From: Lentisphaerota bacterium
GTDB taxonomy: Bacteria; Verrucomicrobiota; Lentisphaeria; Victivallales; Victivallaceae
Reading direction: 5' to 3'
Assembly (NCBI GenBank): GCA_015061865.1
Contig: SUVU01000001.1
Coordinates: 1-64,000 of the forward strand
DNA length: 64,000 nt
Below, one piece after another: positions 42,285 through 44,912 of this stretch. The stretch's first letter is position 1. Each line of letters opens with the position of its first letter. The notes beneath the pieces were generated by a model. The model searched no databases and was not told the DNA's origin. It saw only the letters and a list, made by a program, of their open reading frames with translations. Position numbers and translations under genes: made by a program.

Positions 42285-43148
42285 ATGGCAGATACAGGTT
42301 TTACACTTAATTGGAAAAAACTCGATCCGGAAGCCAGAATCGGCTTGCCGGCAAAGAAATTCACCGGTGTTGCCGGCGGCAGCGGGTTTCTGCTGGCAAT
42401 CGTGCTGACCGTGGCTTTTTACGGCGTATTGTTTCCTTTCTGGCAGATGAAATCATATCAGTTTATCAATATGTTTTTCCACGGCGGAGAGGAAAACCGC
42501 AGTTTCATTCCCTATGTGACGGTGTTTTTAAGCATGTGGTGTCTGGCGCTGCTGTGGATCAAAAGCAAAAAGATCAAAGTCCAGCGCCGGGCTCTGGAGT
42601 TGCAGATATTGCCGGAAACAGCGGGATTTATTCTGTCACCGGATAATTCGGCGGTCGTGCTGAATAATATCGACGGTCAGGTTTATACCGCCAATAATTT
42701 CATGGTGCTGAACCGGATCCAGAAAACACTTGCCAATTTGAAAAATATCGGCAGGGTCTCGGATGTTTCATCGGTACTTAATGATTGCGCCATTGCGGAT
42801 GAAAAATATATCGAAAGCACCTATACGTTTACCAAAGGTCTGATCTGGGCGATCCCGGTCACCGGTTTTATCGGCACCGTGCTGGGACTTTCAGAGGCGG
42901 TCGGCGGTTTCGGCAAAGTCATCACCGAGGGGGCGGATCTGTCGGTGCTTAAAGCCTCGCTCAGCGGTGTTACCGGCGGTTTGGCGGTCGCATTTGAAAC
43001 GACGCTGATCGCTCTGGTGGCGGCGCTGCTGCTCCAGTTGCTGATGACATTGATCATGCAGAAAGAGGAGGATTTCATGGATGATTGCGCCAATTTCTGC
43101 TATCAGAATATTATTGCCAGGCTTAAAATGATCGACACCGGGGACTGA
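42285..43148 (+). CDS. MotA/TolQ/ExbB family proton channel protein
   Basis: IPVTGFIGTVLGLSEAVGGFGKVI...LSGVTGGLAVAFETTLIALVAALLLQLLMTL. Confidence 0.85.
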   Translation: MADTGFTLNWKKLDPEARIGLPAKKFTGVAGGSGFLLAIVLTVAFYGVLFPFWQMKSYQFINMFFHGGEENRSFIPYVTVFLSMWCLALLWIKSKKIKVQRRALELQILPETAGFILSPDNSAVVLNNIDGQVYTANNFMVLNRIQKTLANLKNIGRVSDVSSVLNDCAIADEKYIESTYTFTKGLIWAIPVTGFIGTVLGLSEAVGGFGKVITEGADLSVLKASLSGVTGGLAVAFETTLIALVAALLLQLLMTLIMQKEEDFMDDCANFCYQNIIARLKMIDTGD

Positions 43149-43156
43149 TTTTCGGT

Positions 43157-44002
43157 ATGTTTAAGAGTAACGAGCCTCCGGTATCACTGTTTTCATTTCA
43201 GGATATCATCACGACATTGACCGGGATCATGATTTTTTTCCTGTTGATTTTGGTGATAAGTTTGTTTGAGATCGCAGAAAACAGTCCGCAGGATCAGAGC
43301 GCCCCGGTTTACACGGAATGGCGGGAGATCCAAAAGCAGAATATCCTGCTGCGCCGGCAGATTTCTGAAATCAGTCAGGATATAAAAAAATACCGCCAGC
43401 GGCTGCAGCAGCTTGCGGAGCAGGACGAGGGGGCTTTGACGCTGGAAAAGCGACGTTTGCAGGAGCAGTTGGCGCTGAAAACGGAGAAATTGAATACGCT
43501 CCGGAAAAAACTTGCTGATCTGGAGCATCAACTGTTTGTCGAGGACAAACGCCGTCAGGATGCCGCCGCCCGGAAGCAGCAGCTGGCAGCAGAGCAGCAG
43601 GAGATCCGGAAAGCACAGCAGGCCCTGCCGGAACTGCAAAACCGGATCCACGCACTTAAAAAAGAGATCATCAAACGGCAAAAAGTCAATATCACTCTGG
43701 ATCGGAATATTTCGGAACGCCCGCTGTTGATCGAGTGTTCCAGAGCGTTGATAAAAATTGTCGATCCCCGGACAAACACGGTCAAAGAGTTCAAACTCCG
43801 GACTCCGGCGGCATCGGATATGATTGTTGAGGTGATCGATTATTTAAAAACGCTTCCGGTTTATAAATACTACTTTGTCTTTTTGATCAGACCCAGTGCT
43901 GCCGGATATATGGATTTCCTCCACACCAAATTGAGAACGAAAGCCATTCCCGGGGCGAAATACGGTATTGAACCGATCCTGGAAAGCGAGGAGTGTTTTT
44001 AA
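43157..44002 (+). CDS. Single-TM, coiled-coil MotB/TolR/ExbD-like partner protein (1)
   Basis: PVSLFSFQDIITTLTGIMIFFLLILVISLFE (Asp at start of TM), long coiled coil, small C-terminal domain; follows the TolQ-like gene by 8 bp. Confidence 0.6.
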   Translation: MFKSNEPPVSLFSFQDIITTLTGIMIFFLLILVISLFEIAENSPQDQSAPVYTEWREIQKQNILLRRQISEISQDIKKYRQRLQQLAEQDEGALTLEKRRLQEQLALKTEKLNTLRKKLADLEHQLFVEDKRRQDAAARKQQLAAEQQEIRKAQQALPELQNRIHALKKEIIKRQKVNITLDRNISERPLLIECSRALIKIVDPRTNTVKEFKLRTPAASDMIVEVIDYLKTLPVYKYYFVFLIRPSAAGYMDFLHTKLRTKAIPGAKYGIEPILESEECF

Positions 44003-44003
44003 T

Positions 44004-44912
44004 ATGGCAAAAAATTCTCTTCCAGAAAGCATGGATTTGCTGTTGGATACGATGTGCAACACCTTTGGCGGGGTGATGTTCATTGCGATCGCACTGTCGC
44101 TGGCGTTGTTTGCCGGTCAGATCAAAAAACCGGTACGGCCGCCGGAAAACGAGGCGGAAAAACTTGAAAAAATGCAAGCCGAACAGCGGCAGTTGGAGCA
44201 GGAAAAATCCCAACTTGACAGCGAGCTTGCCGACGTGCGGCAAAAAAGCCGTGCCGGTGAAAAAAACGCTTTGCCGCTGGCTGCAGAGATTGCCGGGTTG
44301 GAAAATCAATCCAGACAACTTGACCGGGAGTACGATACTGTGGAACAGAAACTGCGTTCCGCAGAGGCGAAAAAAGCGCACATGCAGGAGCGCAACGACA
44401 CTGCCGAGGCGCAGAACCGTGAAACAGCCCGGGAACAGGAACGGCAACAGCGGAAAAATGATTCTGACCGCCGGGAACTGGAAAAACAGATCGCAGCATT
44501 AAAAAGCCGTTTGAAACAGCTGCCGCAGCGGAAACTTCACTTTGCCCTGCAGGAAAAAACCGACAAACGTCCGTATGTTGCAGTGATCAGAGGCGGGGAA
44601 TTGTGCCGGCTCGGTACCAATAGCAGAGTATCTTCGGCAGAGGTCAAAGTCCGGCTGGATGGCAATGTGGCGACGCTGTTTCCACAGCGGGGATACGCAC
44701 TGGCGATGATTTCCGGCAGCAATATTACTCAAGTGCTGCCGTGTGACCGGAGCAGGCATTTCCTCTGGATCATCGTGCATCCGGATTCATTTGCCGAATT
44801 TGTCCATCTGCGGCGGCTGCTGCGGCAGTACGGTTATCAGGTGTACTGGTATGTGGAAAGAAATCCGGTGTTGTACTACGGTCGCAGTTCCGGTTACAAC
44901 GCCTCATTTTAA
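44004..44912 (+). CDS. Single-TM, coiled-coil MotB/TolR/ExbD-like partner protein (2)
   Basis: MAKNSLPESMDLLLDTMCNTFGGVMFIAIALSLALFAGQ (Asp at start of TM), coiled coil, C-terminal domain; start trimmed to MAKNSL. Confidence 0.6.
   Translation: MAKNSLPESMDLLLDTMCNTFGGVMFIAIALSLALFAGQIKKPVRPPENEAEKLEKMQAEQRQLEQEKSQLDSELADVRQKSRAGEKNALPLAAEIAGLENQSRQLDREYDTVEQKLRSAEAKKAHMQERNDTAEAQNRETAREQERQQRKNDSDRRELEKQIAALKSRLKQLPQRKLHFALQEKTDKRPYVAVIRGGELCRLGTNSRVSSAEVKVRLDGNVATLFPQRGYALAMISGSNITQVLPCDRSRHFLWIIVHPDSFAEFVHLRRLLRQYGYQVYWYVERNPVLYYGRSSGYNASF

What the first reader, a model, noticed from the sequence alone, without database searches (positions are those of the whole stretch)
42285..44912. TolQ/MotA-like channel followed by two different MotB/TolR-like partners
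The 287-aa protein has the GFIGTVLGLSEAVGGFG / VTGGLAVAFETTLIALVAALL signature of the TolQ-ExbB-MotA family. The next two proteins each have a short N-terminus, one TM helix beginning with a candidate proton-carrying Asp (FQDIITTLTGIMIFFLL; LLLDTMCNTFGGVMFIA), a long coiled coil and a small C-terminal domain. Two non-identical B-subunits suggest a hetero-dimeric stator, unlike the usual homodimeric MotB/ExbD.
Basis: partly seen in the sequence, partly recalled or inferred. Interest (0 to 1): 0.78.

Follow-up and report, generated by a model that had tools for sequence, protein, structure and literature searches.

The report
Two-axle ion motor in GTPase system
A predicted ion-driven membrane motor that almost always carries two different, anciently duplicated central-shaft genes sits inside a GTPase-controlled gene cluster thought to act in bacterial conflict, a combination that the papers I could search do not describe.

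Summary
Window 42285-44912 encodes a MotA/TolQ/ExbB-family channel protein (A; PF01618, E 2e-8) followed by two single-pass coiled-coil proteins (B1, B2), each with an Asp at the start of its TM helix. B1 and B2 are ancient full-length paralogs: 141 sequences split perfectly into two clades, and the Asp is invariant in both alignments. In 401 sampled genomes, 35 of 38 strong A loci have A-B1-B2 consecutive; 62 of 71 contigs from Lentisphaerota, Verrucomicrobiota, Planctomycetota and Desulfobacterota carry both B genes on A's strand. This favours a motor using one B1 plus one B2, though stoichiometry is untested. That is the GAP1-N2 "GTPase-centric conflict system" of Kaur et al. 2020, whose main text names no such motor; 34 of 36 genomes with A also have GAP1-N2. 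B1 and B2 match neither ExbD/TolR nor OmpA/MotB. AglRQS is the precedent for one A with two Bs, but its B proteins are short PF02472 members. Verdict: a new variant joining two known kinds; conflict function and ion conduction are inferred.

The parts
33859..35484 (+). DO-GTPase2-like GTPase, 541 aa, N-terminal zinc-ribbon motifs; P-loop GAPASGKS, G3-type DNAGE, KxD
   Evidence: PF19993 E 2e-4 (21.5 bits, below cut-off 27) in window; 8 of 10 orthologs match at E <= 0.01; GKS, DNxGE, KxD invariant
35503..37980 (+). GAP1 protein, 825 aa: GAP1-N2 (1-124) and GAP1-M (152-251), TM at 350-368, then a probably exported C-terminal part
   Evidence: PF20013 69.3 bits, PF20014 49.4 bits, both above cut-off 24; TM
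37999..40989 (+). 996-aa single-TM protein (about 350 aa before the TM at 353-371, about 620 aa after), no known family; present in 68 of 80 loci
40986..42281 (+). GYF_2-like domain, TM at 98-116, Trypsin_2 peptidase domain (170-385)
   Evidence: PF13365 E 1e-15; GYF_2 weak, E 0.018; in 6 of 10 relatives a 4-6 TM region stands in place of trypsin
42285..43148 (+). A: MotA/TolQ/ExbB-family channel subunit, 287 aa, 4 predicted TM; invariant Thr198 and Thr240
   Evidence: PF01618; alignment A1; alignment to the genome's own TolQ/ExbB-type protein
43157..44002 (+). B1: single-pass TM (helix 11-42) + coil (50-175) + C-terminal domain (188-273), 281 aa
43202..43204 (+). codon of B1 Asp16, start of the TM helix (FxFQDIIT..TGIM)
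   Evidence: invariant in 65-sequence alignment
44004..44912 (+). B2: single-pass TM (helix 9-38) + coil (49-172) + C-terminal domain (184-301), 302 aa from ATG 44004
44046..44048 (+). codon of B2 Asp15 in the TM helix (LLLDTMCNTFGGVMFI)
   Evidence: invariant in 67-sequence alignment
44927..45508 (+). variable last gene; here a 193-aa putative lipoprotein with a Pro/Gly-rich stretch
   Evidence: ORF and signal-like N-terminus MKRWVVSGLMAAIVAGGC; homologs after B2 in L016, L017, L021 only among 11 relatives

Best explanation
The three genes encode an ion-driven membrane motor of the MotA/TolQ/ExbB kind whose axle is a mixed pair, one B1 and one B2, probably A5:B1:B2. Their TM helices would sit in the A ring with Asp16 and Asp15 as the two ion-binding sites facing the Thr198/Thr240 ring. 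Their parallel coils (about 125 residues, roughly 18 nm if fully helical) would carry motion or strain across the periplasm to two paralogous C-terminal domains. The motor is the output or sensing module of a membrane-bound DO-GTPase/GAP1-N2 system: the GTPase switch and GAP1 on the cytoplasmic side gate or read the motor, and the GYF-trypsin and variable last-gene products act as effectors. Shown here: gene content, order, co-inheritance, paralogy, Asp conservation, predicted domain layout. Inferred: ion flow, 5:1:1 stoichiometry, gating by the GTPase, role in defence.
For: A is PF01618 in 12 of 12 orthologs. A-B1-B2 are consecutive in 35 of 38 strong A loci in 401 phylum genomes; the exceptions are one contig-truncated, one with B2 elsewhere on the contig and one with B1 undetected; B1 and B2 genomes overlap 34 of 35 each. 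In 71 contigs with enough downstream sequence, 62 have both Bs on A's strand and two more look rearranged. B1 and B2 are full-length homologs (hhalign E 1e-23; C-terminal domains alone 5e-10; TM segments align Asp to Asp, E 6e-5 against about 1e-2 for control TM helices), yet form two clades with 0 of 141 misplaced. Lengths from TM motif to C-terminus covary (Pearson 0.59, n 67). Thr198 and Thr240 are invariant and align with the Thr of the GTV motif and of the LLTT-type TM motif of the genome's own TolQ/ExbB-type protein (the second alignment by eye from the sequences there). 34 of 36 A genomes have GAP1-N2. The genome has two conventional PF01618 genes elsewhere, each with an adjacent ExbD, so this motor is an extra one.
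Against: No complex was modelled and no conduction measured. B1/B2 TM segments have no significant profile match to MotB or ExbD. The coil-pairing test did not separate cognate from non-cognate pairs (p 0.44 core, 0.11 salt bridges). Three non-truncated loci (L082, L087, L089) keep A and B1 without B2, and four (L080, L086, L088, L096) have no B nearby. Length covariation can reflect shared ancestry. The window GTPase scores below the Pfam cut-off for DO-GTPase2.
Confidence: 0.58

Rival explanations
1. B1 and B2 each form homodimers in separate A5B2 motors that share the A subunit; the two stators serve different states or partners, as with alternative stators.
For: Only co-inheritance, not physical pairing, has been shown; loci with A and B1 only exist (L082, L087, L089).
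Against: Near-perfect 1:1:1 linkage in fixed order, length covariation and matching layouts. Alternative stators would be expected to be lost independently more often, and no intact locus with B2 but without B1 was found among the 80.
Confidence: 0.2
2. Only one of B1/B2 enters the A ring as the axle; the other is a separate membrane partner (for example a regulator or plug) that binds the first through the coil.
For: B2's TM signature (LLLDTMCNTFGG) differs from B1's, and some Desulfamplus loci keep A+B1 only.
Against: Both TM helices keep an invariant Asp at the equivalent position and align Asp to Asp.
Confidence: 0.13
3. The operon is not a defence system but a housekeeping envelope machine (polymer transport, surface motility or protein export) driven by the motor and switched by a GTPase, in the way the Myxococcus AglRQS motor drives gliding. 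This rival concerns function and is compatible with a mixed axle.
For: One A plus two Bs powers gliding in M. xanthus (PMC9120999, PMC3169522); several products here are predicted to reach the periplasm.
Against: Patchy distribution: 12 of 61 genomes including the window's own and 6 of 24 same-genus genomes; variable last gene (vWA, HSP70, ankyrin, Sel1, lipoprotein), as reported for GAP1-N2 conflict systems (PMC7159879).
Confidence: 0.3
4. B1 and B2 are coiled-coil membrane proteins that merely lie next to A; no A-B complex exists.
For: No family match of B1/B2 to known B subunits.
Against: Invariant TM Asp, paralogy and adjacency across several phyla.
Confidence: 0.06

Closest known systems
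GAP1-N2-type GTPase-centric conflict systems (Kaur et al. 2020, PMC7159879)
   Same: DO-GTPase with zinc ribbons, GAP1 with GAP1-N2 and GAP1-M followed by a TM, a GYF protein with either trypsin or a TM-rich region (described there for planctomycetes), HSP70 or vWA genes nearby in some loci, variable extra genes, planctomycete/verrucomicrobial distribution.
   Different: The main text mentions no TolQ, ExbB or MotA (0 occurrences); here the A-B1-B2 motor and the 996-aa protein are constant parts. No FNIII component was detected. The paper's supplementary lists could not be read.
AglRQS gliding/sporulation motor of Myxococcus xanthus
   Same: One MotA/TolQ-like A (AglR) with two non-identical B proteins (AglQ, AglS); whether these form homo- or heterodimers is stated as unknown (PMC9389320).
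   Different: AglQ and AglS are short (162 and 194 aa) PF02472 proteins (PMC3169522); B1/B2 are 281/302 aa with a long coil and do not match PF02472; partner genes differ.
Zorya ZorAB
   Same: Accessory MotA-family motor tied to a defence-type gene set; weak ZorA matches to A (best E 1.4e-4).
   Different: ZorA has a long cytoplasmic tail and ZorB a peptidoglycan-binding domain, in a 5:2 complex (PMC11890865); here A ends about 30 aa after its last TM helix, there are two B genes without OmpA-like domains, and no zorC/D/E.
ExbBD / TolQR, including loci with tandem ExbD genes
   Same: PF01618 channel with neighbouring B genes; the same genome has two such pairs.
   Different: Those B genes are PF02472; B1/B2 are not.

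Membership tests
MotA/TolQ/ExbB proton channel family (PF01618) | Profile match over the conserved TM region above the curated cut-off | tested here: met
   34.4 bits against 22.9; 12 of 12 orthologs match at E <= 0.01
MotA/TolQ/ExbB proton channel family (PF01618) | Assembles a pentamer that conducts ions around B-subunit TM helices | not testable with these tools
   no complex modelling or assay available
ExbD/TolR (PF02472) | B1/B2 match the ExbD profile | tested here: not met
   no match for B1 or B2 at E <= 1 or for N-termini at E <= 10; own-genome PF02472 hits lie on C158 and C105 only
MotB / ZorB | MotB_plug TM region and OmpA-like peptidoglycan-binding domain | tested here: not met
   no PF13677 hit in the window's genome, no OmpA match, models without significant PDB match
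GAP1-N2 GTPase-centric system | GAP1 protein with GAP1-N2 and GAP1-M domains | tested here: met
   69.3 and 49.4 bits, cut-offs 24
GAP1-N2 GTPase-centric system | DO-GTPase with N-terminal zinc ribbons and Glu in the Walker B / G3 motif | tested here: met
   PF19993 in 8 of 10 orthologs at E <= 0.01 (window member 21.5 bits, under cut-off 27); invariant GKS and DNxGE; zinc-ribbon hits
GAP1-N2 GTPase-centric system | FNIII-repeat component | tested here: inconclusive
   no fn3 match among the 8 operon proteins at E <= 1; the paper calls these repeats rapidly evolving, so a profile search may miss them
GAP1-N2 GTPase-centric system | GYF protein fused to trypsin or a TM-rich region (planctomycete variant) | tested here: met
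   GYF_2 E 0.018 (below cut-off) plus Trypsin_2 E 1e-15 in window; homologous slot has 4-6 TM helices in 6 of 10 loci
Zorya | ZorA long cytoplasmic tail, ZorB with PG-binding domain, ZorC/ZorD or ZorE | tested here: not met
   A is 287 aa; two B genes without OmpA; no zorC/D/E hit in the operon with PADLOC
AglRQS | Two PF02472 B proteins beside a PF01618 A | tested here: not met
   two B proteins yes, PF02472 no

The most novel reading that the evidence does not exclude
An obligately hetero-dimeric (5:1:1) ion-driven motor, with a B family unrelated in sequence to MotB and ExbD, is the constant power or sensing module of a GTPase-switched anti-phage or anti-competitor machine spread over Lentisphaerota, Verrucomicrobiota, Planctomycetota and Desulfobacterota: a second, Zorya-independent recruitment of a flagellar-stator-type motor to conflict.
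Probability: 0.35. Interest if true: 0.85.

Novelty: new variant of a known kind. Interest (0 to 1): 0.62.

Why it matters
Whether two-B motors such as AglRQS use a mixed axle is stated as unknown (PMC9389320). A family with two diverged B genes held together across several phyla gives a clean way to settle it, and an asymmetric axle would bear on how ion steps alternate between the two Asp sites. It also gives the GAP1-N2 GTPase systems, described from genomes in 2020 with no later mechanistic paper found in the library I searched, a physical output that can be tested: an ion motor under a GTPase switch.

Tried and rejected
(1) Filing B1/B2 as MotB or ExbD: rejected by family scans, own-genome family searches and profile comparison. 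(2) PDB sequence search with B1/B2 profiles returned matches to the coil only; with the A profile nothing. (3) PDB fold search: B1's best matches are uS11 and RNase H-like/integrase proteins at E 7e-3 or worse, B2's best is actin-fold at E 0.08; not significant, a hint only. (4) Coil pairing test: inconclusive; homodimer scores share register by construction, so only cognate against non-cognate was informative, and it was not significant. (5) Zorya membership rejected. (6) Empty-site comparison: homologs of the two flanking genes lie on different contigs in relatives, so no clean insertion site could be shown; operon GC is somewhat lower than upstream DNA. (8) A literature search combining GltJ, GYF and MglA found nothing; the weak GltJ model match in GAP1 lies in the repeat/linker stretch and was not used.

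Full report
OBSERVATION. The three ORFs are present at the stated coordinates, on the + strand, with gaps of 8 and 1 bases between them. A (287 aa) matches PF01618 MotA_ExbB. B1 (281 aa) and B2 (302 aa from ATG 44004, not the TTG of the ORF list) each have one TM helix with Asp at its N-terminal end. AlphaFold2 models built on 65 and 67 sequences give TM 11-42, coil 50-175 and a bbb-a-b-a-b C-terminal domain for B1, and TM 9-38, coil 49-172 and a C-terminal domain 184-301 for B2, with mean pLDDT 89.7 and 88.5.

SETTING. It runs: a zinc-ribbon GTPase related to DO-GTPase2 (below the Pfam cut-off in the window, but 8 of 10 orthologs match and the GKS and DNxGE motifs are invariant); GAP1 with GAP1-N2 and GAP1-M clearly above cut-off, then a TM; a 996-aa single-TM protein of no known family; a GYF-TM-trypsin protein; A; B1; B2; and a putative lipoprotein. 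This is the gene set described by Kaur et al. 2020 (PMC7159879) as GAP1-N2-type GTPase-centric conflict systems, including the planctomycete variant with a GYF protein fused to trypsin or to a TM-rich region. In several relatives the trypsin slot is indeed a 4-6 TM region. The words TolQ, ExbB and MotA do not occur in that paper's main text; its supplements could not be read. A search for DO-GTPase or GAP1-N2 found only one other paper, on phage shock proteins.

CO-INHERITANCE. Among the window and 11 relatives, 12 of 12 loci have A, B1 and B2 in that order. In 401 genomes drawn from the phylum, 36 have a strong A (E at or below 1e-75, my cut on the listed matches), 35 have B1 and 35 have B2; 35 of 38 A loci are A-B1-B2 consecutive. 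One exception is cut by the contig end, one has B2 elsewhere on the contig, and one has no detected B1. 34 of the 36 have GAP1-N2, while 39 other GAP1-N2 genomes lack this A. In named genomes, 306 stretches encode a relative of A; the best 80 come from Lentisphaerota, Verrucomicrobiota, Planctomycetota and Desulfobacterota (mainly Desulfamplus). Of 71 with at least 2.3 kb downstream, 62 have both B genes on the same strand; of 49 with at least 9 kb upstream, 47 have the 996-aa protein, 46 GAP1 and 44 the GTPase. Two exceptions look rearranged (L099, L104), three have B1 only (L082, L087, L089), four have neither (L080, L086, L088, L096). These searches share genomes, so the counts are not fully independent.

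B1 AND B2 ARE ANCIENT PARALOGS. Profile comparison aligns them full length (E 1e-23), their C-terminal domains alone (E 5e-10) and their TM segments with Asp on Asp (E 6e-5, controls about 1e-2); these are single-comparison E-values. A tree of 141 sequences splits B1 from B2 with none misplaced and support 1.0. Outside the TM signature they diverge fast, and B1 D16 / B2 D15 are invariant. Lengths after the TM motif covary (Pearson 0.59); shared ancestry could contribute. A coil-pairing test was inconclusive.

WHAT THEY ARE NOT. Neither B matches ExbD/TolR, MotB_plug or OmpA, and the TM-segment profiles of MotB and ExbD from related genomes score no better than control helices. The fold search gave no significant match; the hints are RNase H-like or actin-like topologies. 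Over 700 B2 protein clusters exist; those listed carry no precomputed Pfam domain and, where named, are called hypothetical. So 'B subunit' rests on the Asp, the topology and the tie to A, not on a family match.

AN EXTRA MOTOR. The genome has two conventional PF01618 genes (C158, C105), each beside an ExbD gene. A keeps Thr198 and Thr240 invariant; Thr198 falls in the GTV motif shared with the genome's own TolQ/ExbB-type proteins, and Thr240 corresponds by eye to the LLTT-type motif of their last TM helix. From general knowledge of ExbB and TolQ, these two positions hold the Thr that line the ion path.

MECHANISM. Most likely one B1 and one B2 form the axle of an A ring, driven by ions and coupled to a GTPase/GAP1 switch, with the periplasmic coil carrying force or sensing strain, and with trypsin and the variable last gene as outputs. 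Gene content, order, paralogy and Asp conservation are shown; ion flow, 5:1:1 assembly, gating and a role in conflict are inferred. The last gene is variable among relatives: TM plus Gly-rich linker plus vWA, HSP70, ankyrin, Sel1, or lipoprotein, as expected for a conflict system but not proof of one. The distribution is patchy (12 of 61 genomes including the window's own; 6 of 24 same-genus genomes).

COMPARISON. AglRQS is the known one-A two-B motor; its pairing is stated as unknown (PMC9389320), its B proteins are short PF02472 members (PMC3169522), and it powers gliding (PMC9120999). Zorya is the known defence motor, with 5:2 ZorAB, a ZorA tail and PG-binding ZorB that are needed for function (PMC11890865); this system fails those features. 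It is therefore filed as a new variant: a GAP1-N2 core with a distinct, two-B motor. The FNIII component of GAP1-N2 systems was not detected, which is left as inconclusive.

Noticed in passing
L138-L144 (G037:C1, G040:C342, G042:C59): Some relatives carry tandem MotB_plug genes. In two of the three second copies (L142, L144) the TM Asp is replaced by Ala; in L143 it is kept. This is a different two-B arrangement.
   Followed up: partly
relatives G041:C116, G041:C63, G042:C68, G040:C257, G039:C6, G039:C4, G038:C164: Tandem pairs of ExbD-family genes are common in related genomes, so paired B genes may be frequent in this order.
   Followed up: no
L051, L053, L054, L061, L067, gene directly after B2: A TM helix, a long Gly/Ser-rich linker and a vWA-type domain with an intact-looking DxSxS motif, probably exported.
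   Followed up: partly
window 36652-36840 and 36988-37050: GAP1 carries in-frame tandem repeats (60-63-base unit, 3 copies; 18-base unit, 3.4 copies) after the TM.
   Followed up: no
window 37999-40989: The 996-aa single-TM protein is almost as constant as the motor (68 of 80 loci) and has no family match; it may be the structural scaffold of the system.
   Followed up: partly
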